Assembly (NCBI GenBank): GCA_902773435.1
Contig: CACYEN010000117.1
Span: 1 to 60,751, forward strand
Reading direction: 5' to 3'
Source of the DNA: an uncultured Lachnospiraceae bacterium
Lineage (GTDB): Bacteria; Bacillota; Clostridia; Lachnospirales; Lachnospiraceae
Length of the DNA stretch: 60,751 nt
The notes below the pieces were generated by a model. The model saw only the letters and a list, made by a program, of their open reading frames with translations. It was not told the DNA's origin and searched no databases. Positions 8,713-58,713 of the stretch are shown piece after piece (position 1 is the first letter of the stretch; each line of letters starts with the position of its first letter). Both the position numbers and the translations under genes were made by a program.

Positions 8713-9258
8713 CTAATCAAACATGATCCCCGGGTAACGTTCCGCCGGACTTTTCCACCTGATTCCGAACTTCTCCCGGAGGATCCTCTTCTTGGCCTCC
8801 CAGTACACGTGGCAGTACCCGAGGTAATCCCCCTCGCCCGTCTCCTCCCTTATGAGGCGCTCAAGCTCCGGCTCGATCAGGAGATACCGGTCGGTATATT
8901 CGACGGGATCCTCCCCGGCGCTCCCCGTTTTCCGGTAATCCTCGATCGCCTCCGTGAACGTCCGTCCGCGGTACAGCATCTCCCCGCAGTCCTTGAGCCC
9001 CTTCCAGAACGCGAGCTTTCTCGCGTCTCCGTCTTCCTCCGAGTCGGTGTAGGCCCTGCACGTCTCGGGAAACATGGTCACGGCGACCTTCTCCAGGACC
9101 TCGTCTCCCTGAAACCGCATGTCGTGGGAACCGAAGTACTCCTCCGCCCGCCTGCAGACCTCCTCCGCGCTGAGTTCCCCATACTTGTAGCCGTTGACCA
9201 GCCCCTCCAGGAACTCCCTGATCCTGTCTTTTCCGACCGTTTTCCGGATTGTTTCCAT
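8713..9258 (-). CDS. Acidic helical protein of unknown function beside the PTP-TIR gene
   Basis: The 181-residue product has no signal peptide or membrane segment and is predicted by eye to be mostly helical and acidic, with many Glu, Arg and Tyr. The C-terminal third (LGYCHVYWEAKKRIL followed by GIRWKSP) looks like a compact conserved module, but I cannot assign a family or activity. It lies 102 bases after the PTP-TIR gene on the same strand, with no terminator seen in between, so it is likely co-transcribed with it and with the SpoIIE-type phosphatase. A role as partner or substrate of that pair is only an inference from position. Confidence 0.7.
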   Translation of the reverse strand: METIRKTVGKDRIREFLEGLVNGYKYGELSAEEVCRRAEEYFGSHDMRFQGDEVLEKVAVTMFPETCRAYTDSEEDGDARKLAFWKGLKDCGEMLYRGRTFTEAIEDYRKTGSAGEDPVEYTDRYLLIEPELERLIREETGEGDYLGYCHVYWEAKKRILREKFGIRWKSPAERYPGIMFD

Positions 9259-9360: not shown

Positions 9361-10701
9361 TCAGTCGTCGTAATGAGAATCGATGTACTCAAACTCATCC
9401 ATGTAGGGGTAGCTGCTCCAGTAGTCGTCGATCCTCTTCTTCACCTTCTCGTACTCTTCTTTGATCTCCGGGACCGGTTTGCCCCCCAGCGTGCACAGCG
9501 TGCGCCTGAATTCCCTGTCCCTGCTGTCCGGGAAGTAGTCCATCTCACGGCTCCTTGTAAAGAGGTCGAAGCGGATGCATTTCCAGCAGACCGCCCTGTA
9601 GATTTCCTCGTCCGACGCCTTTTCAAGCGGTTCCCTGCGCGAATTCCACGTCTCCCGGGTGCGCAGGTTGCTGTTTATGTGCAGGTCGTTCCTGTATCCC
9701 CTCCGGTCGTCCCCGTAGTTCTCATAATAAGTGACGCCGAGATCCCATTCGCGCTCTTTTTTCTTCTTTCTGAACGAGCCGGCCCTGCTGCCGGCTCCCC
9801 CGCCCGAAGCGGGCTTTTCGGGCGCCGGCACGAGGCCTTTCATCGCGAAAGCTTTCAGGCATTTTTCGGCAAAGTCCGGCTCCGACGGCATGGTCCCTAT
9901 CAGGTCCCCGTCGTCATCGCAGTACTCCCACATCTTTTCGTCCGTCTCGATCGTAACGATCGGTTTTTCGAGGAGTTCCGCAAATTCGCACCCCGAAATG
10001 CCGATGCAGGAGTAGCGTTCACACGGGCTGCGCATCGTGACGAACAGGCTGCAGTCCTCGATCGCGTCGGACCTGTCGCCGCTCCACAGCTTCCCCTCGA
10101 GGATCGTGCGGTCATAGGCGACGTTGAATCCGAGTTCGTTCAATATCCTGACGGTCCCGGCGGCCAGGTCGGCGTCCCATTCGCTGAAGTTGAGAAAGAT
10201 GTACGGTTCGTCCCCCCGGTATGTCCGGTACTCGAAGAAATTCTCGCCGAGACCCTCCGTCCGGATCTGTTCGGCGCGGAGCCCTCTCAGGTAGCTCAGG
10301 ACTTCGTTCCTCTGCTGCTCTGTCTCGACGGCCTCCTTCGAGTACTCTCTCCTCAGGAATCCGATCGGATCCCGGATGCCGTGCCTCGCGAGCACGCAGG
10401 CGGCGACGTAGCCGGTCCTGCCGTGTCCCCCCGCGCAGAAGATCCCGACTTTCATGCCTTTCCCGAGCCGCTCGCAGATCCTGTCGACGAGTTCACACAG
10501 CACGTCGCCTGGCAGCACGTTTCTGTCCTCTATCGGATAGTAGAGGATTTCTCCGCGGAACCCGGTCTTCCACACGCTTCCGTCGAGGGACGCGAGCGGG
10601 ACAAGGACGTCGGCCCCCTCCCGGACGATCCGCTCCGCATCCGCGGCGCTGCCGAGCAGGAGTCCCGGTATGATTTCACACATTTCACTGAATATGGCCA
10701 T
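9361..10701 (-). CDS. Fusion of a tyrosine/dual-specificity phosphatase domain with a TIR-like domain
   Basis: A 446-residue cytoplasmic protein. Residues about 5-145 form a DSP/PTP-like domain: the general-acid loop YPIEDRNVLP has D59, and the P-loop C89-AGGHG-R95-TG is the CX5R signature with Cys nucleophile and Arg. Residues about 166-255 resemble a TIR domain: IFLNFSEWDAD strand, GFNVAYD, an I-x-x-G-x-x-W box, then CSLFVTMRS and a helix carrying E239 (CEFAELLEKPI), in the place of the NADase glutamate. A Lys/Arg-rich linker (near 300) joins a C-terminal domain of unknown type. The gene starts two bases after the SpoIIE-type phosphatase stop, so the two are coupled. TIR assignment is by pattern reading only and is less sure than the phosphatase. 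Confidence 0.8.
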   Translation of the reverse strand: MAIFSEMCEIIPGLLLGSAADAERIVREGADVLVPLASLDGSVWKTGFRGEILYYPIEDRNVLPGDVLCELVDRICERLGKGMKVGIFCAGGHGRTGYVAACVLARHGIRDPIGFLRREYSKEAVETEQQRNEVLSYLRGLRAEQIRTEGLGENFFEYRTYRGDEPYIFLNFSEWDADLAAGTVRILNELGFNVAYDRTILEGKLWSGDRSDAIEDCSLFVTMRSPCERYSCIGISGCEFAELLEKPIVTIETDEKMWEYCDDDGDLIGTMPSEPDFAEKCLKAFAMKGLVPAPEKPASGGGAGSRAGSFRKKKKEREWDLGVTYYENYGDDRRGYRNDLHINSNLRTRETWNSRREPLEKASDEEIYRAVCWKCIRFDLFTRSREMDYFPDSRDREFRRTLCTLGGKPVPEIKEEYEKVKKRIDDYWSSYPYMDEFEYIDSHYDD

Positions 10702-10703
10702 CC

Positions 10704-12557
10704 TTAAGCTCCCGTCTGTCCCGCTGTGCGCCCCTCATCCGCTTCCTCACGCGGAGCGTCGGCCGCGGCGGGCACTCCCTTGTATTCCAGGCAGAGCATC
10801 GTCATGTCGTCGAACTGTTCGGCGTCCCTGACAAAGTCGTCGATGGACGAGCGGACGTCGCGAAGTATCCCCTCCGGGGTGGAGGACGTGCTGGCGCGGA
10901 GCGCGTCCATCAGACGCCCCATACCGAAAAACCCGCCGCTGCTGTTCGTCGCCTCGGGTATGCCGTCCGTGTAGAGGAAGAGCCTGTCTCCGGAAAGGAG
11001 CTTAAGCCCGTATTCCCTGTATTTCACATCCGCCAGGCCGCCGATGACAAAGTCGTGTTTGTCCCTGACCAGCTCTATTTCACCGCCCCCGTGTATGATG
11101 ACGGGGTACTCATGCCCGGCGTTGGACGCTGTGACCGCGCCCGTGGCGATGTCCAGGATCCCGAACCAGATCGTGACGAACATCTCCTCGCGGTTGCTCT
11201 TGCATATCTGTTCGTTGACGGACCTGAACACCTCTGCCGGGCTCAGCCCGGTCATCGCGTAGTTCTGGACCATCAGCCTGGACACCATCATGAACAGCGC
11301 GGCGGGGACGCCCTTGCCGGAGACATCAGCTATAATGATACCGAGATGGTCCGCGTCGATGAAGAAGAAGTCGTAGAAGTCGCCCCCGACCTCCTTTGCC
11401 GGGGACATCGTCGCGAAAATGTCAATCTCGGGCCTGTCGGGGAAAGCGGGAAAGCTGTTCGGCAGCATGTTCGCCTGTATGCGGGCGCCCAGCGCGAGCT
11501 CCGTGCCGATCCTCTCCTTCTCGGCGGCGATAGTCTGGATTCTCTCCGTATAGCTGTCGATCTCCAGCGCCAGGCCCACGACGTCCTCGGACAGCTGTCC
11601 GATCTCATTGGACGGATCGATATCCTTGAGATCCTCCCGGACCGCCCGGCTGTCCTTGTTCTTCTTGTAATTCCGGATGCTCTTCTGGACCTTCCTGAGG
11701 GGCCGCAGCACGAACACCGAGATCAGGGACAGGCACATGATCGAGAGGACGGCCTGCAGGATCAGCCCGGAGATCGTGCTCTTCACCGCCTCGTCGTGCA
11801 TGTCCGAGTGCAGGTTCCCGAGGAAGTACGTCATCCCGATCAGGACCGGCATGTCGCCGGCTTTTCCAAGGGAGTAATAGCAGTCCACGTACTCCCCGGC
11901 ATCCGCGATGGCCTCCTGCTTCTCCAGGGCCCTCATCATGGCCCTGCTCTGGCTCTCGTTGACCTGGTCCACTACCTTCCCCAGGGTATACACATCCTCG
12001 TAATTGGTCCCGCGCACGGCGCCCGGGTCGGCGGCGCTCAGCAGGAAGAACTGGCTCTTGCAGGCCGGATCCGTCGAGACGCAGAAAAGAAAATCCGCGC
12101 CAAATGAGCGCTTGATCTCATTGAGCCTCGTGATCAGCCAGGAGTAGATGATCTCGGCATAGAGCTTCTGCGCCTCCTCCGGTATTGTGCCGAGCTCCTG
12201 CTCCGTGACATAGTTGAGCTGCAGATCGGGGTACCCGGCGGCAAACTGCCGGCATTTTTCGGCGGTTCTCGTCTCCCGGCTGAAGTCCACGTCATATTCG
12301 ATATCCATTTCGTCCGCGTGGTCATGCCAGTACCGGAGGAGCCATTCCCATGCCGGGTATTCCATGATGCTCTTCGCGACATCGGTGTAGACCTGCGAGG
12401 ACATCTTCTCCATCTGCGTCGTCACGCTCTTGTTGGCCAGATAATTAAATGAAACGTAGGAAAGGATCCCGGTTGCCAGTCCCCCGATCAGGAACAGCGC
12501 GGCGACCAGGAAGATAATCCCGCCTCTGTAGGTTTTGTTATTCTCTGAAGTATCCAT
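10704..12557 (-). CDS. Membrane-bound SpoIIE/RsbU-type PP2C phosphatase with extracytoplasmic sensor
   Basis: A 617-residue Ser/Thr phosphatase. Transmembrane segments at about 14-37 and 262-284 enclose an extracytoplasmic domain of roughly 220 residues with no family I recognise. A HAMP-like linker and short coiled coil (about 285-370) lead to the PP2C_SIG catalytic domain (about 375-590), with metal-binding motifs GGDFYDF and ADVSGKG and a further FLYTDG motif. Relatives such as RsbU dephosphorylate anti-anti-sigma proteins, but no STAS or anti-sigma gene lies nearby. It is the first gene of the unit and is coupled to the PTP-TIR gene, so its target could instead lie in that pathway. Confidence 0.9.
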   Translation of the reverse strand: MDTSENNKTYRGGIIFLVAALFLIGGLATGILSYVSFNYLANKSVTTQMEKMSSQVYTDVAKSIMEYPAWEWLLRYWHDHADEMDIEYDVDFSRETRTAEKCRQFAAGYPDLQLNYVTEQELGTIPEEAQKLYAEIIYSWLITRLNEIKRSFGADFLFCVSTDPACKSQFFLLSAADPGAVRGTNYEDVYTLGKVVDQVNESQSRAMMRALEKQEAIADAGEYVDCYYSLGKAGDMPVLIGMTYFLGNLHSDMHDEAVKSTISGLILQAVLSIMCLSLISVFVLRPLRKVQKSIRNYKKNKDSRAVREDLKDIDPSNEIGQLSEDVVGLALEIDSYTERIQTIAAEKERIGTELALGARIQANMLPNSFPAFPDRPEIDIFATMSPAKEVGGDFYDFFFIDADHLGIIIADVSGKGVPAALFMMVSRLMVQNYAMTGLSPAEVFRSVNEQICKSNREEMFVTIWFGILDIATGAVTASNAGHEYPVIIHGGGEIELVRDKHDFVIGGLADVKYREYGLKLLSGDRLFLYTDGIPEATNSSGGFFGMGRLMDALRASTSSTPEGILRDVRSSIDDFVRDAEQFDDMTMLCLEYKGVPAAADAPREEADEGRTAGQTGA

Positions 12558-36184: not shown

Positions 36185-38041
36185 TCATCCCGTCAAATCC
36201 CGGAACGCTTCAGAAAAAGCATTATAATTCGCGGTTTCATAATCCGCGCAGAAAACGGCAAATTCCACCGTCTCAAATCGATGTATATAGTCATCCGTGA
36301 CCTTCCGGAACGCTTCTGCCACTGTCGCTGGCGGATTGCGGAACGCCCCGCAGCCGAACGCGCCGAGAATCAGCACTTCATTTTCCTCATAGGCCGCGAT
36401 CTCATAGATCCGCCGCACGCGTTTCTCTATCAGCTCCCGCAGGTCCTCTGCACTGAGGCTCCCGGAGCCGCCGCCTTTGCCGGAAACTGTATCGCGGATA
36501 TCATAATCCCTCAGGTTTGGAGCGGCGCAGGTCAGGACATCCACGCTGTACCACTTCTCCTCCGGCAGCATCTCGGGGAAATCCGTGTCACTCTTGAAAA
36601 CGGTGATCCCCGGCGTGTAGATAATGTCGTCATTATAGAGCGTGTCCTTCGCCTCGCGGTGCGGAAGGTAAAAATCCGTCATCATCCTCGGTGTGTCCAG
36701 TGTGAAATACAGGGTGCTGCACCGGCAGAGGCTTTCTTCCTGCGCGGAAGATCCGTTCTTTACCCCTCCTCCGGGATTTACGGAAGACGCGAAATTGAGA
36801 ACGCAGGTTTTCTTTCCGATGTAATTCCCCGCGGCTTCAAGCGAACGTTTTCGCGAGACAACGATTTTCGCGGGATTCCCGCGATTCTTTCCTGCTCCGG
36901 GTTTCTCCGGCAGCACTTCCTTTTCCGGATACAGCTTTCTTCCCCTTGTCGACGCCAGGATCGAATCCGAGAGCAGCGGGATATCCCTGCATTTTCGGGA
37001 GGTATCCTTAAAGATCTCGACGTTCTTTGCCCGCCGCTCGTATCTCCCTATTCCCGCCGCCGCTTTCTCTTTCCCGCTGCCGATGCAGAGGGTTTCGATC
37101 CATTCCCGCCTCCGGATTACCGCGAGCCAGTCAGCCGGAATATTCTCATATCCGTAGTAGAGCCCTGCCAGTCCGCCGCAGACCGCGCCGACCGTATCGG
37201 TATCCTCTCCGAGGTTTACCGCGGAGAGCAGCGCGTCCCTGAACGTATTGGTCTTTATCAGGGACCAGACCGCCGCCTCCAGTGTATCCACAACATATCC
37301 GGAACTCCTGATCCCGGACGCGGGGAGATCGCGGAGCGCGTAGAGATCATGCAGACGACCGTAGTAAGAGAGCTCCGTCAGCACCTGCAGATCCTGCCTG
37401 TAAAACGCGAATCCCCTGTCGATCCCCCTCTGCAGCAAAACGATCAGTTCTTTGTCGGTGACCGGAACATCCGCCCCCAGAATCTCCCTGGCCATAAAAT
37501 AGTACAGGCCGCATGCAATCTTTGCGCGCATGTGGTTGTGCGTCAGCCCGGACACCCGGTGGATCAGGTCGACCGCCTCTTCATCGCTGAACTTTCCGGC
37601 TTCCTGCTGTTCCCGGCAATACAGGCACACCGGCAGGATCCTCATCAGGGATCCGTTTCCGTTATCTCCCTCACCGGTTCCTCCGCAGGTCGCGGTATCC
37701 CGGTATTTCATATATCGGAAGATCGCGTCCGTCGTGCAGCCGCCGTTATCAAATGCTTCCCCGAACGGCGTATACTCGCCCTTCGTCAGCCACAGGGCAA
37801 AGCGGTACATGATATCCGCGAGGTTGATCCCGTGATTCTCCTGTATGCTGATCATGGTTGCCAGCGTCATACTGCTGTCATCCGTCCAGGTGCCGACAGG
37901 CATATCATACGTGCCGTGCCCGGTCATGGTCGTGACCGGCTTTTCAGCGATGATTTCTCTCCTCAAAAACTGTACCGGGCATCCGAGCGCATCGCCCGTG
38001 ACGACACCCATAATTCCATCAAGCCAGCTCCTGCTGTTCAT
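36185..38041 (-). CDS. Fusion of an ADP-ribosylglycohydrolase (ARH) and a bacterial PARG domain
   Basis: A 618-residue protein of two ADP-ribose hydrolase modules. Residues about 5-315 are an ARH/DraG-type domain: the metal motif T53-D54-D55 (GTWTDDSS) and a second Asp pair in the NLGEDTDTVGAV segment. Residues about 385-610 are a TIGR02452/PARG domain: VLNFASSVNPGGG followed by QEE, with GGG at 424-426 and the QEE glutamates at 435-436, the PARG signature. So it can likely remove mono-ADP-ribose and poly- or linear ADP-ribose chains, though linkage specificity is not readable. The ATG at 38041 follows GGAGG. It is 53 bases after the VWA gene, in one operon with it. Confidence 0.93.
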   Translation of the reverse strand: MNSRSWLDGIMGVVTGDALGCPVQFLRREIIAEKPVTTMTGHGTYDMPVGTWTDDSSMTLATMISIQENHGINLADIMYRFALWLTKGEYTPFGEAFDNGGCTTDAIFRYMKYRDTATCGGTGEGDNGNGSLMRILPVCLYCREQQEAGKFSDEEAVDLIHRVSGLTHNHMRAKIACGLYYFMAREILGADVPVTDKELIVLLQRGIDRGFAFYRQDLQVLTELSYYGRLHDLYALRDLPASGIRSSGYVVDTLEAAVWSLIKTNTFRDALLSAVNLGEDTDTVGAVCGGLAGLYYGYENIPADWLAVIRRREWIETLCIGSGKEKAAAGIGRYERRAKNVEIFKDTSRKCRDIPLLSDSILASTRGRKLYPEKEVLPEKPGAGKNRGNPAKIVVSRKRSLEAAGNYIGKKTCVLNFASSVNPGGGVKNGSSAQEESLCRCSTLYFTLDTPRMMTDFYLPHREAKDTLYNDDIIYTPGITVFKSDTDFPEMLPEEKWYSVDVLTCAAPNLRDYDIRDTVSGKGGGSGSLSAEDLRELIEKRVRRIYEIAAYEENEVLILGAFGCGAFRNPPATVAEAFRKVTDDYIHRFETVEFAVFCADYETANYNAFSEAFRDLTG

Positions 38042-38094
38042 TTCGGCACCTCCATTCATCTCCGGCAGCCGCAGTCTTCCCGTCCCATGATCCT

Positions 38095-38769
38095 TCAATC
38101 CCGGTGCCTCTTCTTATAATCCCGGCGGATGGGTTCCAGAAGCGCCTCTTCATCCAGCGCTTCCGACATCTGCTTAGCGGACGGGGCACATCTCGCAAAG
38201 CTTACCGCCTTCTCCATCACCTCGAAATTCAGCTGGGTGCCGGCGCTGTCATGCTCATACCGGACCGAACGGTTTGCCCGGATCCCGAAGCGCTCCGCCT
38301 CGGATACAGCGTCGATATTCGCTCCGAGGAAGAGAAACTCCCAGTGGTACTTCTCCTTCTGGTGTTCGATCATCCGGCGCACCCTGTCATAGCTGTAGGC
38401 GCGGCTGGCATTCTCCATACCGTCCGTCGTGATGATAAACAGCGTCTTCTCCGGCACGTCCTCCTCCCTGGCGTACTTGTGGACATTTCCGATATGGTGG
38501 ATCGCGCCTCCGACGGCATCCAGAAGCGCCGTGCAGCCGCGCACGTAATACTGGCTGTCATTCATCGGCTCCACCTTCCGGATATCCGCCCTGTCGTAGA
38601 TCACGTCCGTCCGGTCGTCGAACAGTACGACCGAGACGCAGGCTTCCCCTTCTTCCTTCTTCTGCTTCGCGATCAGGCTGTTGAACCCCCCGATTGTATC
38701 GGCCTCCAGCCCCGACATGGATCCGCTCCTGTCGAGAATAAATACCAGTTCCGTCAAACCTTTCTTCAT
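38095..38769 (-). CDS. VWA-domain protein, TerY-like
   Basis: A 224-residue cytoplasmic von Willebrand factor A protein. The MIDAS site is complete: DRSGSMSG (D13, S15, S17), a Thr in the CTALLDAVG segment and Asp in TTDGMEN. The GGFNSLI and FLGANIDAV segments are typical of TerY-like stand-alone VWA proteins, which in other bacteria scaffold phosphatases, kinases and ADP-ribose enzymes. It starts behind its own promoter (-10 at 38822) and precedes the ARH-PARG gene, so a scaffold for ADP-ribose removal is the natural inference. Start has GAGGAAG upstream. Confidence 0.92.
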   Translation of the reverse strand: MKKGLTELVFILDRSGSMSGLEADTIGGFNSLIAKQKKEEGEACVSVVLFDDRTDVIYDRADIRKVEPMNDSQYYVRGCTALLDAVGGAIHHIGNVHKYAREEDVPEKTLFIITTDGMENASRAYSYDRVRRMIEHQKEKYHWEFLFLGANIDAVSEAERFGIRANRSVRYEHDSAGTQLNFEVMEKAVSFARCAPSAKQMSEALDEEALLEPIRRDYKKRHRD

Positions 38770-38821
38770 ACTTACTTCCTCACTTTCCGCTGCCGCCGCA
38801 GCTCTTTTTTACTGTGAGGCC

Positions 38822-38827
38822 AGTATA
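38822..38827 (-). promoter_or_regulatory. Promoter -10 of the VWA-ARH/PARG unit
   Basis: On the minus strand TGC-TATACT (an extended -10, 38822-38827) about 52 bases before the VWA start. The place for a -35 falls in the U-run of the macrodomain-gene terminator, with only a weak match. So the VWA unit restarts transcription just where the previous operon stops. Confidence 0.5.
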
Positions 38828-38840
38828 GCAGGCCGGAACG

Positions 38841-38868
38841 AAAAAACGGTCGCCCGTGAGGCGACCGT
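38841..38868 (-). terminator. Intrinsic terminator of the glycan-macrodomain operon
   Basis: Stem ACGGTCGCC (38846-38854) with GGCGACCGT (38860-38868), loop of five, then a run of six U on the minus strand (38841-38846). It lies right after the macrodomain gene stop and separates the operon from the VWA unit. Confidence 0.88.
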
Positions 38869-38873
38869 CTTTC

Positions 38874-40067
38874 CTATTCGATTATACAGGGGAGGCCGTG
38901 CTCCTCCAGCTGGATATCCAGCTCGATCATGTCGTAAATCTGGTGCTCTATAAAGAAAGAGAAGATGATGTCTGTCTTGTCACAGGGAGACAGGGCGTAA
39001 CCGGCTCTCGCGAGAAGGTCCCGCGTCTCATCCATGTTCAGTTTCGCGCCGATGCAGAGACAGAGCGCCGTCAGCTTCTGCGGGTGGTATTCCGGATTGT
39101 TCTTGATCTTGGAAAAAACCTTCTTATCCACGATCGCTCTTTTATAGACTTCCGTATTATCCAGCCCCTTCTTGTCGATCAGGTAGAACAGGTACTGCGG
39201 AAAGGTATCGGACAGATGTTCCATCCGCTCCGCCAGCTCCCGCTGCATATCCGGAATGGCAGTCTCTTCTTCATCGTACAGGTCCCCGGGCGCGAAAAGC
39301 GCCGCTTCCTGAACATACCCGGACTCCTCAATATCCCGGTCCGGTTCTTCCCGCCGGCTTGCGGAAACGGGCATCTGGAAATCCGGCATCTTCGGCTTCG
39401 GGCGTCCCTGCCGTGCGCGTCTCCTCTGTTCTTCCAGGAACCGCCGTGAATACGCTTCCGGAACCTCCCCGGACTCTTCACGGCTCTTCCGTTCGGCGTA
39501 ATCAGGTCCCCCGTACTCCTCCTCCCGCCTCTCCTGTACATAATTCCGATCGATGTAGGCTTCCAGCCCCGGGTAAAGGTTCCTGCCCATCCGGGTCGCC
39601 TTCTCATCAAATACCACCAGATAGATCTGCATATCCGATCTCAGGAGGAAGGCATGGATCTCATCAACCGCGATCCGCATTCCTTCTTCCTTCGGATACC
39701 CGAATCCGCCCGTTGAGATCAGGGGAAACGCGATGGACCTGATGCCGGTCTCGGCAGCCAGGGTGAGGCTCTTCCGATAGCACGCCCTCAGCAGTTCTTC
39801 CTCTCCCCGCCTGCCATCGATATACAGGGGACTGACGGCATGGATAATATATTTTGCCGGCAGGTCAAACCCCGGCGTGATAAAAACACCGCCTTCCTCC
39901 ACGGTGCCGATGTGTTCCCTGCGGTAAGCCAGGAGCTTTTCACAGCCGGCAGCCTGGTAGACGGCGTGGTCACACCCGGTTCCGACCACGGGCTGTTCAT
40001 TCGCCGTATTGACGATGGCTTCCGTATGCATCCTGGTGATGTCATTGCGAACAATCTTAAACGGCAT
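38874..40067 (-). CDS. Macrodomain protein with C-terminal HTH-like domain
   Basis: A 397-residue protein. Residues about 1-170 form a macrodomain (AIVNTANE near 18-25, the GTGCDHAVYQAAG loop, and a STGGFGYP loop) of the ADP-ribose/O-acetyl-ADP-ribose binding type. A charged, low-complexity linker (about 175-280) leads to a C-terminal domain (about 285-397): FYLIDKKGLDNTEVYKRAIVDKK then ALCLCIGAKLNMDETRDLL, which looks like the XRE-like HTH module joined to many Firmicute macrodomains. So it may bind DNA or RNA in response to an ADP-ribose ligand. I moved the start to the ATG at 40067, behind GAGGAG. It is the last gene of the glycan operon. Confidence 0.9.
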   Translation of the reverse strand: MPFKIVRNDITRMHTEAIVNTANEQPVVGTGCDHAVYQAAGCEKLLAYRREHIGTVEEGGVFITPGFDLPAKYIIHAVSPLYIDGRRGEEELLRACYRKSLTLAAETGIRSIAFPLISTGGFGYPKEEGMRIAVDEIHAFLLRSDMQIYLVVFDEKATRMGRNLYPGLEAYIDRNYVQERREEEYGGPDYAERKSREESGEVPEAYSRRFLEEQRRRARQGRPKPKMPDFQMPVSASRREEPDRDIEESGYVQEAALFAPGDLYDEEETAIPDMQRELAERMEHLSDTFPQYLFYLIDKKGLDNTEVYKRAIVDKKVFSKIKNNPEYHPQKLTALCLCIGAKLNMDETRDLLARAGYALSPCDKTDIIFSFFIEHQIYDMIELDIQLEEHGLPCIIE

Positions 40068-40077
40068 TGTTATCACT

Positions 40078-52578: not shown

Positions 52579-55497
52579 TCAGATATTCAGGCCGTGATCC
52601 CGGAAGATCCGCTGCAGGGCGACGTTCAGCCGGTCTCTTACGTAGGAATAATCGTCTTCCCGGCATTCTGCGCTGACAGACAGCGTCATGGTCCCGTTTC
52701 CGATCAGGGTAATCCCGTTGTAGACGGGACCGTTCAGGATCCGCCTGTCATTCCGGCCGATCCCGGGAAGCTCCTCATTCAGTATCCGCTCCACTTCGTC
52801 CGCGGAGAGCGCGGAAGATACGACCATCTCACAGATCACGAGGGAGTTCTGCTGCGTACTGTTCTTTATCGTCCTGATATCCCTGTTGTTGCAGGTAATG
52901 ATGTCGCCTTCGCGGGTCAGCAGCTTGACGCAGCGGATCCCGATCTCCACTATCCTTCCTTTACAGAGAGGGCTCCCGTATATTGCCATCTCCACGTTGT
53001 CTCCGATATGGACGGTCCCCTCAAACACATAGGTCAGTCCCGCGAAGATATCCGCTACAAAATTCTGTGCGCCCAGGGATACGGCCAGCGCCAGGGATCC
53101 CATGGCGGCCGCGATCGCCGTCGGGCTGAACCCCAGCAGTTCGAATGCCTTCGCCAGGAAAAAGATCAGCCCTACATACAGCATAACGTTCGCGATAAGG
53201 TGCAGGATTGTTTTTCCCCTGGGACCGGAAAACATACCGCAGACTGTCGTAATGAACCTGATGGTGATCAGGATCAGGACAATCCTGGTAAACAGGAGCA
53301 GGATCGCGGCAGCGGCATACAGATTGAATCCTTTCTCCCAGTCTCCGGCATAAACATAAGAATAAACTGTCTCTCTGGCGGAAGACGAACCCGAGTTCAC
53401 AATGGGGAGCATCTGCAGTATGAAAAACGCCGTAGTGATCTCCAATGCGGCGGCGCCCTTCCTCAGGGGAGTGGCCTCGGCAATTGCCCTGCGGAGCGGC
53501 CCCAGTTTTTTCTTCGGGTCGTCGTTCCCTTTCTTTTTTTTATAGGTATTGAAAAAGTCCTCCGTATAACCGGAAAAAGTCAGCCACGCGATGACACTGT
53601 AGATCAGGCAGAACAGGAGACAGCCGGTGAGCACCAGGGAGAGCGTCCCGGAGAGGACGGGGGTTTTCGGACTCCTGCAGCAGGCAATGACACCTTCAGG
53701 TGCCCCTGTCCACTCAAGGATACCGGATGATTCCACGGGAACGGACGTGATACGGAATCCGCTCTCTTCCGTGCCCGGCGTCTTCGTAAGGACATCTGCC
53801 AGGTCCATCTCTGACAGGCCGGGGCTGACACTGTCCGTTCCCTCAAGATCTTCTTTCCCGGAAACCAGGATCCTGCCGGTTTCCGCGTCCGCGATCCAGA
53901 GCGTCGTCCTGTCGTCAGAGAAAGTGCGGAGGATCTGCCGGACGGTTTTTTCGGGATCCAGATCATCGTTTGCCATTGCCGCAGTGTCGATATTGAGCAG
54001 CATCACCCCGTACAGGTCCCGAGACCTGTCATCGCGGATCCTGATCCCCAGCCTCATCTCGGTCAGCCCTGTCGTCTCGTCAGTTTCCGGATCGTGGATG
54101 ATATACGGAACCCCGTTCAGGTTCCGCCTGAAGTCATAGGTTGAGGAATCCGGCTGCTCACCGAGCTTAAGTCCGATCCACGGGCCGCTGCTCACCGTTT
54201 CACGGCCGCTCGAATCATACAGGGTGATAGAAGACGCGGAAATGCTTTCCGCCAGTGTCTTCAGCACCTCGGTATCCCGCAGCTCCGGATAGGCATCCAG
54301 AAATTCAGCGATCTGGCTGCCGTAATCCAGGTAGATATCCCGAAAAGCCTGTGTGTTCTCGCTGTACCGCTCTGTATGGATCGCGATACTGTCCGCCATC
54401 ATGTCAAGGAGTTCCCTGCCCCTGACCGTATCGTCATGCATCCTCTCCAGCGCATAGCCGAAAAAGCCGCAGAGCGCGATCATGATGAGCCCGAAAATTC
54501 CGTAGAGGCACACGCTCGACCTGACGCGGGAAGGCTGAAAGGCGGTTTCTTCATCCGGAGTAAAAATATTGTTGTAAACGTAGGGATAAAGGGAAAAGCC
54601 GGCGACAAGCAGCGTGGCCAGGAGGATGATAATGGCCGCAATCATATATCCTTCCTGAACAAACGCCTTCGAATACAGATTCGGTATCGGCTGAAGAAGG
54701 AGCACATACCCGGCCGGCATTGCGGAAGTACCCGAGAGATAAGAGAACCTTTTATCATCATACTCCAGGGTCCCGGAACCTTTCGCGTCCCCGTCCTCCA
54801 GGTCCTCCCGGGTAAGGCCCAGATCCCCAAGGCTTTCGCAGTCCGAAAAATAATGATCGTTTTTGTAAAGGATGCCGGAGGGTTCCCCGCTGTCCGGATC
54901 AAGGGAAACAAATATCGTCGGCACATTATATGTGATCTCTGTCCATTTCAGGATGCCGGGAATATCGATGGTTTCCCCCACGATATCGTCTACTACGGTT
55001 TCTTCATGCCATTTGACGATATAACTGTCGGTCTGTCCGATCCTGCTGTATACCACATAGGTTGACGGCTGATCCGGCGCGGTAAACGAGCCTTTTCTTC
55101 CCTGGAACAGGGACGCCTCCAGGCCGAGCTTTCTGACCGCCGGATCGTCCGGGAACAGTTCACCGCCCCGTACGCTGACCACGATACCGTTCTCCGGGGA
55201 TTCTTCCGACACGGTCCCGCCGTCAGCGACGTTTTGAAGGGCAAGAGAAGCGAAGACCGCCTCCACCTCATACCTGTTTATGATCCTTTTCTCATAATCG
55301 GTCCACGCTTTGGACAGGTTGCGCAGGGTATAACTGACGGCATCCAGGGTCAGCGGTTTTTCCTTCGCCGCTTCCCGGGAAAGCCTCCCGTAATTCTGCC
55401 AGGCGGCAATCCAGCTGAATGCAACGACCAGACCGGCTGCAAGAAGTGTCGTTAACAGGACTCTTCGGCGAAAGTACTTCAACTCTTCCCTCCTCAC
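52579..55497 (-). CDS. Large MscS-family mechanosensitive channel with extracytoplasmic sensor domains
   Basis: A 972-residue membrane protein. TM1 about 15-33; a first extracytoplasmic domain up to about 280; two segments (about 282-299, 322-339); a second extracytoplasmic domain (about 350-610); more segments (about 616-636 and several around 690-800). The MscS core is at about 780-970: TM3 pore helix with GSLALAVSLGAQNFVADIFAG, then the beta-domain motif VHIGDNVEM and the C-terminal alpha/beta domain (VERILNEELPG). So it is a tension-gated channel with a large ligand- or redox-sensing extension, unlike the small MscS of about 290 residues. Its start overlaps the UbiB-like stop (ATGA), so the two are coupled. 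Confidence 0.88.
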   Translation of the reverse strand: MRREELKYFRRRVLLTTLLAAGLVVAFSWIAAWQNYGRLSREAAKEKPLTLDAVSYTLRNLSKAWTDYEKRIINRYEVEAVFASLALQNVADGGTVSEESPENGIVVSVRGGELFPDDPAVRKLGLEASLFQGRKGSFTAPDQPSTYVVYSRIGQTDSYIVKWHEETVVDDIVGETIDIPGILKWTEITYNVPTIFVSLDPDSGEPSGILYKNDHYFSDCESLGDLGLTREDLEDGDAKGSGTLEYDDKRFSYLSGTSAMPAGYVLLLQPIPNLYSKAFVQEGYMIAAIIILLATLLVAGFSLYPYVYNNIFTPDEETAFQPSRVRSSVCLYGIFGLIMIALCGFFGYALERMHDDTVRGRELLDMMADSIAIHTERYSENTQAFRDIYLDYGSQIAEFLDAYPELRDTEVLKTLAESISASSITLYDSSGRETVSSGPWIGLKLGEQPDSSTYDFRRNLNGVPYIIHDPETDETTGLTEMRLGIRIRDDRSRDLYGVMLLNIDTAAMANDDLDPEKTVRQILRTFSDDRTTLWIADAETGRILVSGKEDLEGTDSVSPGLSEMDLADVLTKTPGTEESGFRITSVPVESSGILEWTGAPEGVIACCRSPKTPVLSGTLSLVLTGCLLFCLIYSVIAWLTFSGYTEDFFNTYKKKKGNDDPKKKLGPLRRAIAEATPLRKGAAALEITTAFFILQMLPIVNSGSSSARETVYSYVYAGDWEKGFNLYAAAAILLLFTRIVLILITIRFITTVCGMFSGPRGKTILHLIANVMLYVGLIFFLAKAFELLGFSPTAIAAAMGSLALAVSLGAQNFVADIFAGLTYVFEGTVHIGDNVEMAIYGSPLCKGRIVEIGIRCVKLLTREGDIITCNNRDIRTIKNSTQQNSLVICEMVVSSALSADEVERILNEELPGIGRNDRRILNGPVYNGITLIGNGTMTLSVSAECREDDYSYVRDRLNVALQRIFRDHGLNI

Positions 55498-57116
55498 TTA
55501 CCCGCTGCTTTTATCAGCTTCTTCACGGAGTAGACGGCCAGCGCGATGGACAGCGCGAATCCCACCAGTGAAAACAGCGGCACGCCATCGACCATCGGCG
55601 GCACCTGGGCGCTGTAGAGGCTGCAGGAGCCGCTGAACAGGACACAGGCAAATATGGCGATTACCACATTTTTGATCACAACGATCAGTTTATGGAGCGG
55701 TTCTTCATATCCCGTCAGTTCAAAGCTGACCTTCGTCCTGCCCTTCACGAGATTCCTCAGCGCGTCCGTAGCAAGGCCCGGCAGCTTCGCGGTCCGCATC
55801 GCGCTCACGGCAAGAGATTCCGCGGAGGAAGCCAGCTTTTCTTTTACGTCAATGTTTTCTTTTGCCCTGGAAAGCAGTTTTTCCTGCAGGAAGCCGAACA
55901 GGTCAAGCTCCGGGCAGAGCACTTCCAGTACGCCTTCCATGGTGACCAGGCTCCGGACCATCATCGTATACTCCGCGGAAACGGCAATATGATGCTCATT
56001 CAGGAGGTTCGTCAGTTCGACCATCAGGTTGCCGACGTCCATATCCTGCAGGCTTGTCGCAGACATATACCTGGAGCTGATGCTCTCCAGGTCGTCCATC
56101 AGGCGGGGTTTGTTGAGCTTCCCTTTCACCGTGCCCATCGCGAGCGCCGCGTTGGTCAGCGCCTCCACATCCTCCTGTACCAGCGCGAAGATCAGGTTCT
56201 GGATCGCGGTGATATTTCCCTCGCTGAGCCTTCCCACCATTCCGAAGTCGATCCAGCACGGCACTCCGCCGCTGACCATGATATTTCCCTGATGCGGATC
56301 GCCGTGGAACAGCCCCGCGTCCAGCACCTGGTGCAGATAGTTGTTCGCGAGCGCTTTCCCGATTTCCATGCAGTCATAGCCGTCCTGCACCAGCCGTTCT
56401 TTGTTCGACAGGGAATACCCGTCAACATAGGTCATCGTGAGGATGCGCTCCGTTGTGAGCTCATCTATGATCTTCGGGCAGGTGACCACTGTGTCATCTT
56501 CGATGCACTGCTCATGAAACGCTCTGGTATTATTCGCTTCTACCCTGAAGTCCAGCTCTTCCCAGGTAACCTTCTCCAGCTCCTCCAGGATCGCCTTCAG
56601 ATCGATCGATTCCGCTTCATCATCGTCTTCCGCCGACATGTTCACCATCCCGGCAAGCTTCTTCAGAAGGACAAAGTCCTCCCGCATCATATCGGCGATC
56701 CCCGGCCTCTGTACCTTTGTGACGACCCTTGTCCCATCCTTCAGCACGCCGTAGTGCGCCTGCGCGATGGACGCGGAACCCAGCGGTTCATCCCTGAATT
56801 CACGGTAGAGTTCATCGATGGTCTTTCCGCTCTCCTCTTCGATCACCGCCCGCGCCAGTTCCGCCGGGAGCGGTTTGACGTTGCTGCGCAGCTTTTCAAG
56901 CTCTTCGCAGTACTGTTTCGGGAGCATATCCGTCCGGCTGGACATGATCTGTCCGATCTTGACGTAAGTCGGGCCGAGATCTTCCAGTGTTGTCCGGAGC
57001 TCCTCCGGCGTAAAGCCGTTGCTGTAAAAATTGTGCTTCGCAAATACGCCGAATATCGCGGCGGCACGTTTTTTATTTGTCTTTTTACCCTTTTCGGGCG
57101 TCCGCTTTTCTGTCAT
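55494..57116 (-). CDS. ABC1/UbiB-family atypical kinase
   Basis: A 540-residue protein of the UbiB/COQ8/AarF family. The KxGQ-type N-terminal motif is YVKIGQIMSSR; the Ala-rich phosphate loop is SIAQAHYGVL, the catalytic loop HGDPHQGNIMV and the DFG-type metal loop IDFGMVGRL. Two C-terminal hydrophobic segments (about 485-537) anchor it to the membrane. Known members support lipid or quinone handling via ATPase activity. As anaerobic clostridia lack ubiquinone, a lipid or membrane-stress role is more likely. Operon place: after the DUF308 gene, before MscS with an overlapping stop. Confidence 0.93.
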   Translation of the reverse strand: MTEKRTPEKGKKTNKKRAAAIFGVFAKHNFYSNGFTPEELRTTLEDLGPTYVKIGQIMSSRTDMLPKQYCEELEKLRSNVKPLPAELARAVIEEESGKTIDELYREFRDEPLGSASIAQAHYGVLKDGTRVVTKVQRPGIADMMREDFVLLKKLAGMVNMSAEDDDEAESIDLKAILEELEKVTWEELDFRVEANNTRAFHEQCIEDDTVVTCPKIIDELTTERILTMTYVDGYSLSNKERLVQDGYDCMEIGKALANNYLHQVLDAGLFHGDPHQGNIMVSGGVPCWIDFGMVGRLSEGNITAIQNLIFALVQEDVEALTNAALAMGTVKGKLNKPRLMDDLESISSRYMSATSLQDMDVGNLMVELTNLLNEHHIAVSAEYTMMVRSLVTMEGVLEVLCPELDLFGFLQEKLLSRAKENIDVKEKLASSAESLAVSAMRTAKLPGLATDALRNLVKGRTKVSFELTGYEEPLHKLIVVIKNVVIAIFACVLFSGSCSLYSAQVPPMVDGVPLFSLVGFALSIALAVYSVKKLIKAAGK

Positions 57117-57164
57117 TTTTTATCACCCCTCTGAGATGGTCGCCAGGCTCCGGATCGGTCCGTT

Positions 57165-57719
57165 CTATTCTTTCTGCTGCCGGAACGGCCAGATCAGGAG
57201 CAGGCAGATCATATATACCACCGCAGAGTAGAAGAGTGTTCCTCCGATCACCTGCAGGACGGCGCGCGGATCATACGCCCACGGATTAATAAAGACGATG
57301 GTGCCGAACAGAAGAAGCAGGCAGTTCAGAATGATGAGCGCCCACCAGCCCTTTCGTCCGGAACGTCGCGCATGGGTCAGGGCATGATAAAGACCCACAA
57401 GCCCAAGCAGGATCGGCAGTGTGCCGGTAAGCCAGTTAAGCAGTGTAAAGAACAGGCCGTCGACCGCAAAAAGAAGGATCCCGAAGAAGCCGACAAGAAG
57501 TCCCAGAGTCAGCCCGATATAATTGGCCAGGGCCTTTTTGCTGCTTATAAAGTCCAGTATCCTGAGGATCGAAAAGATCACGAAGAAAAACCCGAGAGCC
57601 TTTCCCAGTATAGGGATATAGGATACCGGGATGACGAACATCGTGAGTCCCGCAAACAGAAGAAAGATGATCATCATGACCATCGTTCTTTTTAACTTGT
57701 CCAGACTGTTGAACAGCAT
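57165..57719 (-). CDS. DUF308/HdeD-type membrane protein
   Basis: A 184-residue protein with about six hydrophobic segments, in the pattern of HdeD/DUF308 proteins (three paired helices with GW and short charged loops, e.g. RRSGRKGWWALI). The ATG at 57719 follows GAAGGAGGGAG; the longer frame to 57776 lies in the previous gene. Members are linked to acid or envelope stress but the activity is unknown. It sits between the secreted-protein and UbiB-like genes. Confidence 0.88.
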   Translation of the reverse strand: MLFNSLDKLKRTMVMMIIFLLFAGLTMFVIPVSYIPILGKALGFFFVIFSILRILDFISSKKALANYIGLTLGLLVGFFGILLFAVDGLFFTLLNWLTGTLPILLGLVGLYHALTHARRSGRKGWWALIILNCLLLLFGTIVFINPWAYDPRAVLQVIGGTLFYSAVVYMICLLLIWPFRQQKE

Positions 57720-57735
57720 CCTTGTTCTCCCTCCT

Positions 57736-58713
57736 TCAGATTTCGGGCACTTCGAAGGAAACGTTATCCGTCTCAAATGTCCTGCAGAAGAAATTCATCT
57801 CTTCGCCGCCGATCCTGTAATCGCCGATATCGATCCGGATGGTATCTTCTTCCGTTACATTAAATACCGCTCCCTTCAGAAGCTCGTCAGCCGTATAGCA
57901 GAGACAGATCCCGGTCTCATCGTCGATGACCATGTCACATTTATACGTGAAGGTGATGGTACCCGGCTCGGCGTGATAAAGACCGCAGGACCGCCCGAGA
58001 TATTCTGTATCGTCCGTGCGGTCGACGCCAAGCCATTTGATAAACGTCTGGTCCGCGCAGTCCCAGAATGGAGAGGTCTTATCACGAACGCTTCTCGCGC
58101 TCAGCAGCACACCGTCCCATTCGCCGAAACCGGACCCGTCCGCCGGGACGGGATACATGCGGAATCCCTTGTCCGTCCTGACAAACACCATCTCGTTCTC
58201 CCCGTCACGGTAGTGGATGTTCCCATCCGCATCCCTCTCAAGGAGCGTGATGATCTCGTTTTTCTTTTTGTCGCGGCGATGGTAGGTGACGGAATACGTG
58301 TCAGGCATCCTGACCGGATCCGGAAGCTTCATGACAAAGTCAACCTTCCCCTTTTTCTCGGAGTCGCTCTCTCTTGAGATCCCGTCCGCTCCGGTCCCGA
58401 AAAGAGAATCCCAGAAATCCTCCGAAAACTGGTCGGGGCTTTTCACAAGCTTTTTAACCTGATCCATGATCCACGCCTTGTTGCTTTGCGGGTCGTTCCC
58501 GTTCAGCCCGATTATGATCGGCAGCATTTCTTTGACATGCTCGAGCAGCTTCTGTTTCAGCGTCACTTCATCCTCCTCCCTGTCCCGTTCCACCGCTTCG
58601 GTTTCCTTCGGAGCTTCAGCTTCCGTACTCTCCTCTCCGGCAAAAGCCGCGCATGACAGCACGGCGGCTGTCATCAGAAGCGTAAGCATTAATCTGATTG
58701 TTCTCCTGACCAT
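57736..58713 (-). CDS. Secreted acidic protein of unknown function
   Basis: A 325-residue exported protein. Signal peptide about 1-24 ends at SCAAFAGEE (Cys not in a good lipobox). An acidic low-complexity stretch follows (about 25-55), then a mixed region and a beta-rich C-terminal half (VTYHRRDKKKNEIITLLE, HYRDGENEMVFVR, then TFTYKCDMVIDDETG). The repeating strands recall lipoprotein-carrier or LolA-like beta sheets, but I cannot name a family. It is the second gene of the TetR-led operon. Confidence 0.75.
   Translation of the reverse strand: MVRRTIRLMLTLLMTAAVLSCAAFAGEESTEAEAPKETEAVERDREEDEVTLKQKLLEHVKEMLPIIIGLNGNDPQSNKAWIMDQVKKLVKSPDQFSEDFWDSLFGTGADGISRESDSEKKGKVDFVMKLPDPVRMPDTYSVTYHRRDKKKNEIITLLERDADGNIHYRDGENEMVFVRTDKGFRMYPVPADGSGFGEWDGVLLSARSVRDKTSPFWDCADQTFIKWLGVDRTDDTEYLGRSCGLYHAEPGTITFTYKCDMVIDDETGICLCYTADELLKGAVFNVTEEDTIRIDIGDYRIGGEEMNFFCRTFETDNVSFEVPEI

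What the first reader, a model, noticed from the sequence alone, without database searches (positions are those of the whole stretch)
9361..12557. PP2C phosphatase coupled to a tyrosine-phosphatase/TIR fusion protein
A membrane SpoIIE-type Ser/Thr phosphatase gene is followed after two bases by a gene joining a CX5R phosphatase (C89, R95, general-acid D59) to a TIR-like domain (about 166-255) with a possible catalytic Glu (E239). I know of no described system with this pair. TIR domains in bacteria often act as NADases or signal producers in defence, so one idea is a phosphorylation-controlled TIR response to an outside stimulus sensed by the PP2C protein. Seen: motifs, order and spacing. Inferred: function, defence role.
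Basis: partly seen in the sequence, partly recalled or inferred. Interest (0 to 1): 0.75.

Follow-up and report, generated by a model that had tools for sequence, protein, structure and literature searches.

The report
Phosphatase fused to altered TIR domain
A bacterial protein joins an intact-looking phosphatase to a TIR domain that lacks the amino acid needed to cut NAD, and the few relatives found join the same TIR module to other parts, so it looks more like a signal reader coupled to a phosphatase than an NAD-cutting defence enzyme.

Summary
A SpoIIE-type PP2C (617 aa) is followed after two bases by a 446-aa protein: a PTP/DSP phosphatase with C89/R95/D59, a divergent TIR domain, and an unassigned C-terminal domain. 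The TIR call holds (profile-profile 99.3%; top Foldseek hits mostly TIRs). The proposed catalytic Glu does not: E239 lies two residues past the NADase position, which is G237 here and C, A, A in the three relatives found. A Ser needed by AbTir is Asn in all four. Relatives keep TIR plus C-terminal domain but change the N-terminal part: NADAR-like (2) or HEAT repeats (1). Both NADAR-like domains differ at both catalytic-Glu positions. In one relative the PTP is a separate gene overlapping the NADAR-TIR gene by four bases, which supports a PTP-TIR partnership. PP2C is not a conserved partner: none was found in three relatives' neighbourhoods, and none of 11 other PP2C loci held a PTP-TIR match. 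Best reading: a probably non-NADase TIR module, perhaps a reader of NAD/ADP-ribose-type ligands, attached to a phosphatase. Ligand, substrate and inactivity are inferred. New variant of a known kind.

The parts
10704..12557 (-). SpoIIE-type PP2C phosphatase, 617 aa, N-terminal region between two hydrophobic stretches; neighbour, not a conserved partner
9361..10701 (-). 446-aa PTP - TIR - C-terminal-domain protein
10252..10701 (-). PTP/DSP phosphatase domain, residues 1-150; P-loop C89-X5-R95, general acid D59 (codons 10435-10437, 10417-10419, 10525-10527)
9916..10230 (-). divergent TIR domain, residues about 158-262, without the NADase Glu (G237, codon 9991-9993; E239 is 9985-9987); N171 in place of a needed Ser, D197 kept
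9361..9759 (-). C-terminal domain of residues 315-446, no Pfam match at E up to 10, ends in the shared YPYMDEFEYID-type motif
8713..9258 (-). 181-aa ORF 102 bases downstream without a convincing family match; like the PTP-TIR gene it was found in 1 of 42 genomes of the genus, its own
36185..40076 (-). context only: ARG-PARG fusion (36185-38098), weak vWA match (38095-38769), Macro-domain protein (38874-40076), about 25 kb away

Best explanation
The 446-aa protein is a PTP/DSP-type phosphatase with an intact active site, tethered to a TIR module that is probably not a NADase. The shared unit of the family is TIR plus a C-terminal domain. Its N-terminal partner varies (PTP, NADAR-like domain, HEAT repeats), and in G189 the PTP is a separate overlapping gene. 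I think it works as a reader-phosphatase: the TIR module (with, in two relatives, a NADAR-like domain that also differs at its catalytic-Glu positions) binds an NAD+/ADP-ribose-type ligand or an ADP-ribosylated target, or assembles on binding, and this positions or switches the PTP. Shown by sequence: domain identities, the changed residues, the PTP-TIR linkage in two genomes, no PP2C near the relatives. Inferred: no NADase activity, ligand class, PTP substrate. The PP2C is probably a lineage-specific neighbour.
For: TIR homology 99.3%, TIR-led Foldseek lists. NADase Glu column: Glu in 8 of 8 comparison TIRs, but G, C, A, A in window, L002, L003, L019; in a wider set of 45 distinct rows 38 have Glu. 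HMM alignments place that column on the Glu of solved AbTir and Cat1 TIRs; AbTir E208A is NADase-inactive (PMC11374754, passages). AbTir S140, whose change inhibits activity there, corresponds to Asn in 4 of 4. PTP-TIR link: fused in the window; separate 148-aa PTP, 51% identical, overlapping the NADAR-TIR ORF by four bases in G189; the PTP profile (E 1e-10 or better) and the C-terminal profile (E 0.001 or better) each hit the same 2 of 397 family genomes. NADAR in L019 and L003: Pfam E 1e-23 and 2.3e-33; positions E43 and E125 (PMC11543638 section 12) are H and Y in L019, T and Y in L003, while another NADAR of G189 has Glu at both. Precedent: inactive members of the TIR/DrHyd/SLOG class are said to bind nucleotides as sensors (PMC9503650, passages).
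Against: No ligand or activity was tested. A changed Glu position is not proof of inactivity; E242 is invariant in the four and could serve another chemistry. [quoted passage not shown] A protein scaffold fits about as well: in L002 a kinase gene lies in a same-strand run with the HEAT-TIR gene. The genomes of L003 and L002 gave no hit to the PTP profile (0 of 2). Both co-occurrence profiles were built from members that include the two genomes that they hit. Four members were found, two of them from records titled MAG. Models are of low confidence (46.6 and 66.7 mean pLDDT).
Confidence: 0.42

Rival explanations
1. TIR as protein-protein scaffold: the TIR plus C-terminal module is an assembly or docking domain without any nucleotide ligand, bringing the PTP to phosphoproteins in a kinase/phosphatase signalling network.
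For: NADase residues changed; best solved-structure hit of the combined TIR profile is an animal TLR TIR, with MyD88 also listed; in L002 a Ser/Thr kinase (Pkinase E 3.1e-21) is the fourth ORF after the HEAT-TIR ORF, all on one strand with gaps of 12 to 78 bases, so one operon is possible; HEAT repeats, generally a protein-binding module (recalled), replace the PTP there.
Against: Two of three relatives carry a NADAR-like domain, a fold tied to ADP-ribose derivatives.
Confidence: 0.33
2. Active NADase or cyclase TIR under phosphatase control, with E239 or E242 as catalyst and the PP2C as outside-stimulus sensor.
For: E239 is Glu in 3 of 4 and E242 in 4 of 4; D197, matching AbTir D167, is kept in 4 of 4.
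Against: HHalign and MAFFT agree on the register: the Glu column is G/C/A/A; E239 is Arg in L019; the Ser is Asn in 4 of 4; no PP2C near the relatives.
Confidence: 0.08
3. ADP-ribose-metabolite phosphatase: the PTP acts on a small molecule such as ADP-ribose 1''-phosphate, and the TIR/NADAR-like folds only hold that substrate.
For: Rhodanese-phosphatase superfamily enzymes are reported coupled to ADP-ribosylglycohydrolase genes and proposed to process released ADPr (PMC9503650 section 3.8); the PTP matches PTP-SAK and, below cut-off, Tc-R-P; the window has an ARG-PARG and Macro set.
Against: The ARG set is about 25 kb away. The solved structures matched by the PTP include protein phosphatases such as the Thermococcus PTP and DUSP23 (the organism of the best hit is recalled).
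Confidence: 0.12

Closest known systems
TIR domain proteins of the same taxonomic family (e.g. L010, L005, L016; Pfam TIR_2)
   Same: TIR domain with the same start, YD motif and spacing
   Different: 8 of 8 compared have the Glu and 7 of 8 the Ser (L016 has Cys); the three scanned with Pfam show LRRs or a DUF4841 match below cut-off, no PTP or NADAR
AbTir, SARM1, Cat1 and ThsB TIRs (NADases or signal makers)
   Same: Fold; equivalent of AbTir D167 kept
   Different: Positions of the catalytic Glu and Ser changed in 4 of 4
NADAR/YbiA ADP-ribose N-glycosidases (DarT1-NADAR antitoxins)
   Same: The N-terminal domain of relatives L019 and L003 is NADAR by Pfam
   Different: E43 and E125 positions are H/Y and T/Y; no search for DarT was made; the window protein has no NADAR match
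ARG-centred ADP-ribose-processing systems with rhodanese-phosphatase partner (PMC9503650 section 3.8)
   Same: Theme of a Cys phosphatase together with NAD/ADPr folds; an ARG-PARG and Macro set lies in the same window
   Different: PTP-TIR is not next to the ARG; a TIR-phosphatase fusion is not in the passages or the section that I read
Thermococcus PTP/DUSP23-like and PTP-SAK phosphatases
   Same: C-X5-R loop and general acid Asp, aligned over residues 40-138
   Different: Fusion to TIR and the C-terminal domain

Membership tests
TIR domain | TIR profile/fold match | tested here: met
   HHalign 99.3% with eight TIRs; relatives L019 and L003 hit Pfam TIR_2 at E 0.0014 and 0.0058, below the curated cut-off, window protein no Pfam TIR hit; Foldseek TIR-led lists, none at E 0.001 or better; family-only profile against PDB sequences not significant
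TIR NADase / signal synthase | catalytic Glu on helix C | tested here: not met
   G237; family G/C/A/A against Glu in 8 of 8 comparison TIRs
TIR NADase / signal synthase | Ser (AbTir S140) and Asp (AbTir D167) | tested here: inconclusive
   Ser position is Asn in 4 of 4, Asp kept in 4 of 4
Thoeris | ThsB-type TIR plus ThsA partner | tested here: not met
   ThsB model E 0.038 only; no Thoeris model among the hits of the five flanking window proteins scanned at E 0.01
PTP/DSP (PTP-SAK) | C-X5-R loop and general acid Asp | tested here: met
   PF22784 above cut-off; C89, R95, D59 conserved in G189
PTP/DSP (PTP-SAK) | phosphatase activity | not testable with these tools
   none
SpoIIE-type PP2C | SpoIIE domain with Asp motifs | tested here: met
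   PF07228 E 2.2e-50; motifs
conserved PP2C plus PTP-TIR two-gene system | the pair recurs in relatives | tested here: not met
   no PP2C match in 3 of 3 relatives' held neighbourhoods; PTP-TIR match in 0 of 11 other PP2C loci
NADAR enzyme (relatives' N-terminal domain) | catalytic residues at E43/E125 positions | tested here: not met
   T/Y in L003, H/Y in L019; an Asp two residues after the Tyr leaves activity open
ARG-centred ADPr-processing system | PTP coupled to an ARG gene | tested here: not met
   ARG gene is about 25 kb away in the window; no family scan was run on G189's neighbours

The most novel reading that the evidence does not exclude
A rare, undescribed reader-phosphatase family: a pseudo-TIR with a new C-terminal domain, sometimes doubled with a pseudo-NADAR, senses an NAD+/ADP-ribose-derived signal and switches a PTP, so that former NAD-cutting and ADP-ribose-cutting folds serve as receptors that convert a nucleotide signal into dephosphorylation.
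Probability: 0.25. Interest if true: 0.75.

Novelty: new variant of a known kind. Interest (0 to 1): 0.5.

Why it matters
Bacterial TIR domains are mostly studied for what they make or destroy. A small family in which the TIR, and in two relatives also the NADAR-like domain, have changed catalytic positions while an attached or adjacent phosphatase keeps its site would be a test case for TIRs as receptors, and for a direct wire from NAD/ADP-ribose chemistry to dephosphorylation. It also corrects a natural misreading: a Glu near the right place is not the catalytic Glu.

Tried and rejected
Active TIR with E239: rejected on alignment register. PP2C as conserved partner: rejected. Defence island: flanking genes scanned are transport-type or DUF386; the PADLOC hits of the flanking ABC ATPase look like generic ATPase matches. 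PADLOC PDC-M42C hits of the NADAR parts look generic, since an ordinary NADAR of G189 hits the same model better.

Led nowhere: viral-contig scans with A2, the PTP part, a comparison TIR and A4 gave no confirmed relative. Plasmid and phage tblastn gave only PTP-region matches, in 1 and 4 records; PHROGs gave one PTP-region family labelled thymidylate synthase; NCBIfam gave nothing for the 446-aa protein. The 181-aa ORF has no plasmid match. The DctM neighbour was found in 2 of 42 genus genomes, the other one at 36% identity, so no empty site could be shown. A NADAR-like stretch in the own genome (L071) is below cut-off and lies in a different kind of ORF. An alignment that put NADAR over PTP (A5) was not used. 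The first structure model was poor (pLDDT 46.6). Literature searches in which no listing, abstract or passage that I saw describes a TIR-PTP or TIR-NADAR fusion: (open-licence papers only; most listed papers were not opened).

Dropped from counts: 58 aligned rows collapse to 45 distinct; 38 have Glu; the other seven are the four family members (L003 truncated there), two other divergent ORFs (in L005 and L021, with A and Q) and one truncated row (L037). That profile was built from Glu-bearing TIRs, which favours Glu rows. One search's G072 match has two stops inside and was not used.

Full report
What is there. On the minus strand, a 617-aa SpoIIE-type PP2C (12557-10704) is followed after two bases by a 446-aa ORF (10701-9361), then after 102 bases by a 181-aa ORF (9258-8713). 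The PP2C has its SpoIIE domain at 402-592 (E 2.2e-50), two hydrophobic stretches, and GGDF, DVSGKG and DDMTM motifs. The 446-aa protein starts with a PTP/DSP domain (PTP-SAK, E 2.9e-8, above cut-off; solved PTPs, best E 3e-6). The alignment with the best solved PTP pairs the same Cys, Arg and Asp.

The TIR domain is divergent. Pfam gives no TIR hit for this protein at E up to 10, PADLOC only a ThsB hint at 0.038, and a profile of the four family TIRs alone finds no significant solved structure (best E 0.1, a Cas9; TIRs at 0.35 to 0.57). Compared as a profile with eight TIRs of the same taxonomic family it scores 99.3%, E 1.2e-20; three of those eight were scanned with Pfam and all three are TIR_2. 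Models are of modest quality: mean pLDDT 46.6 for residues 148-446 and 66.7 for the TIR alone, each from three sequences. Foldseek lists are led by TIRs. With the better model, 18 of the top 20 rows are TIR proteins or complexes that contain one, one is a nucleoside deoxyribosyltransferase and one is unrelated; the best E is 1.9e-3 and none reaches 0.001.

The catalytic Glu is missing from its place. In the alignment of 12 TIRs the Glu column is Glu in 8 of 8 comparison TIRs and G237, Cys, Ala, Ala in window, L002, L003 and L019. HHalign gives the same register. The comparison profile aligns this column to the Glu of solved AbTir and Cat1 TIRs. In AbTir, E208A is NADase-inactive, and changes of S140 and D167 inhibit (PMC11374754, passages). 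The S140 equivalent is Asn in 4 of 4 family members; the D167 equivalent is Asp in 4 of 4. In a wider set of 45 distinct TIR rows from my loci 38 have Glu; that profile favours Glu rows, and two further non-Glu rows (in the L005 and L021 loci) show that loss occurs elsewhere. I read this as a TIR that is probably not a NADase, an inference from sequence.

The family. The window protein as query found two loci in genome contigs: L002 (Solobacterium MAG), HEAT repeats-TIR-C-terminal domain, 744 aa in an ORF open at the contig end; and L003 (Lachnospiraceae MAG), NADAR-TIR-C-terminal domain. Among 299 genomes of the window's family it matched 16 at E 0.001; of these only the own genome and G189 matched beyond the TIR part, G189 with two hits. 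In G189 a 148-aa PTP and a 501-aa NADAR-TIR-C-terminal protein are adjacent ORFs that overlap by four bases. Domain calls: NADAR E 1e-23 (L019) and 2.3e-33 (L003), HEAT E 6.5e-9 (L002). The family is rare in what I sampled: the C-terminal profile hit 2 of 397 family genomes (window's own and G189) and 1 of 338 phylum genomes (own). The TIR plus C-terminal profile matched over its whole length only in the own genome among 391 class genomes and among 42 genus genomes; the other matches, in 9 and 6 genomes, reach at most model position 168 of 310. The PTP profile hit the same 2 of 397. These profiles were built from the same few members, and the samples overlap.

PTP and TIR belong together. Fusion in the window and a four-base gene overlap in G189, at 51% PTP identity, are two arrangements of one partnership. 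PTP is not universal: the genomes of L002 and L003 gave no hit to its profile (0 of 2; that call held no genome known to match, though the same profile finds both known members).

The NADAR-like domains are changed too. In the structure paper, E43 and E125 of the Phytophthora NADAR contact the distal ribose, and the matching residues E88 and D171 of E. coli C7 NADAR matter for toxin rescue, D171 and K95 also for hydrolysis in vitro; [quoted passage not shown] Chain 8bau fits this numbering with an offset of two, which I inferred from spacing. Aligned to it, L003 has Thr and Tyr at these places; by alignment L019 has His and Tyr. The K50 position is Arg in L003 and Lys in L019. Another NADAR in G189 has E, K, E, D, W at the five places. 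Both altered domains have an Asp two residues after the Tyr, so loss of activity is likely but open.

The PP2C is probably a bystander. 31 of 42 genomes of the genus, the own included, have relatives of it at E 1e-20, up to 10 in one genome. None of 11 other PP2C loci matched the PTP-TIR protein within the held flanks of 1.5 kb or less; of the eight closest, L041 and L042 end just after the PP2C, so six are informative downstream. No PP2C match was found at E up to 10 in the held neighbourhoods of G189 (19.9 kb), L003 (16.9 kb) or L002 (6.1 kb). The 181-aa ORF was found in 1 of 42 genus genomes, the own one. A role of the PP2C in this one operon remains possible.

How it most likely works. The domain with an intact site is the PTP. 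Inactive members of this Rossmannoid class are described as nucleotide sensors (PMC9503650, passages), and Cys phosphatases of the rhodanese-phosphatase superfamily as coupled to ADP-ribose-processing genes (section 3.8, read in full). The window has an ARG-PARG fusion, a weak vWA match and a Macro protein about 25 kb away, so ADP-ribose chemistry is present in this genome, without proof of a link. For a scaffold role speaks that in L002 a protein kinase is the fourth ORF after the HEAT-TIR ORF, all on one strand with gaps of 12 to 78 bases. I put 0.42 on a reader-phosphatase with an NAD/ADPr-type ligand or target, 0.33 on a pure protein scaffold, 0.12 on a metabolite phosphatase, 0.08 on an active TIR.

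Novelty. In searches of the open-licence library no listing, abstract or passage that I saw describes a TIR-PTP or TIR-NADAR fusion. I read passages of PMC9503650, PMC13092281, PMC11125620, PMC11543638 and PMC11374754, one section each of PMC9503650 and PMC11543638, and only listings of the rest. The parts are known kinds; the combination, the changed residues and the C-terminal domain are new to me. Interest 0.5.

Noticed in passing
36185-40076 (-): ARG-PARG fusion (E 9.1e-67 and 2.5e-34), an ORF overlapping it with a weak vWA match (below cut-off), and a Macro-domain protein (E 2.2e-31): resembles the ADP-ribose-removing gene sets of PMC9503650 section 3.8.
   Followed up: partly
L005 and L021 (genome G211): Two places where a divergent TIR-like ORF without the Glu (Ala or Gln) lies upstream of a TIR ORF with Glu (LRR-bearing in L005); possible inactive/active TIR pairs.
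   Followed up: no
8713-9258 (-): 181-aa ORF without a convincing family match, found in 1 of 42 genomes of the genus, its own.
   Followed up: partly
L002:2316-6095: Same-strand run of ORFs after the HEAT-TIR gene that ends, cut by the contig end, in a Ser/Thr kinase (Pkinase E 3.1e-21).
   Followed up: no
L070 (genome G189): A second NADAR with Glu at both catalytic places, followed by a long Ala/Pro/Glu-rich tail, in the genome that has the altered NADAR-TIR protein.
   Followed up: partly
52579-58713 (-): Mechanosensitive-channel-type protein with a weak Cache match (972 aa) and an ABC1-type kinase, then a small and a secreted-looking ORF; similar-looking ORFs flank a PP2C of the same family in G715 (L047).
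   Followed up: no
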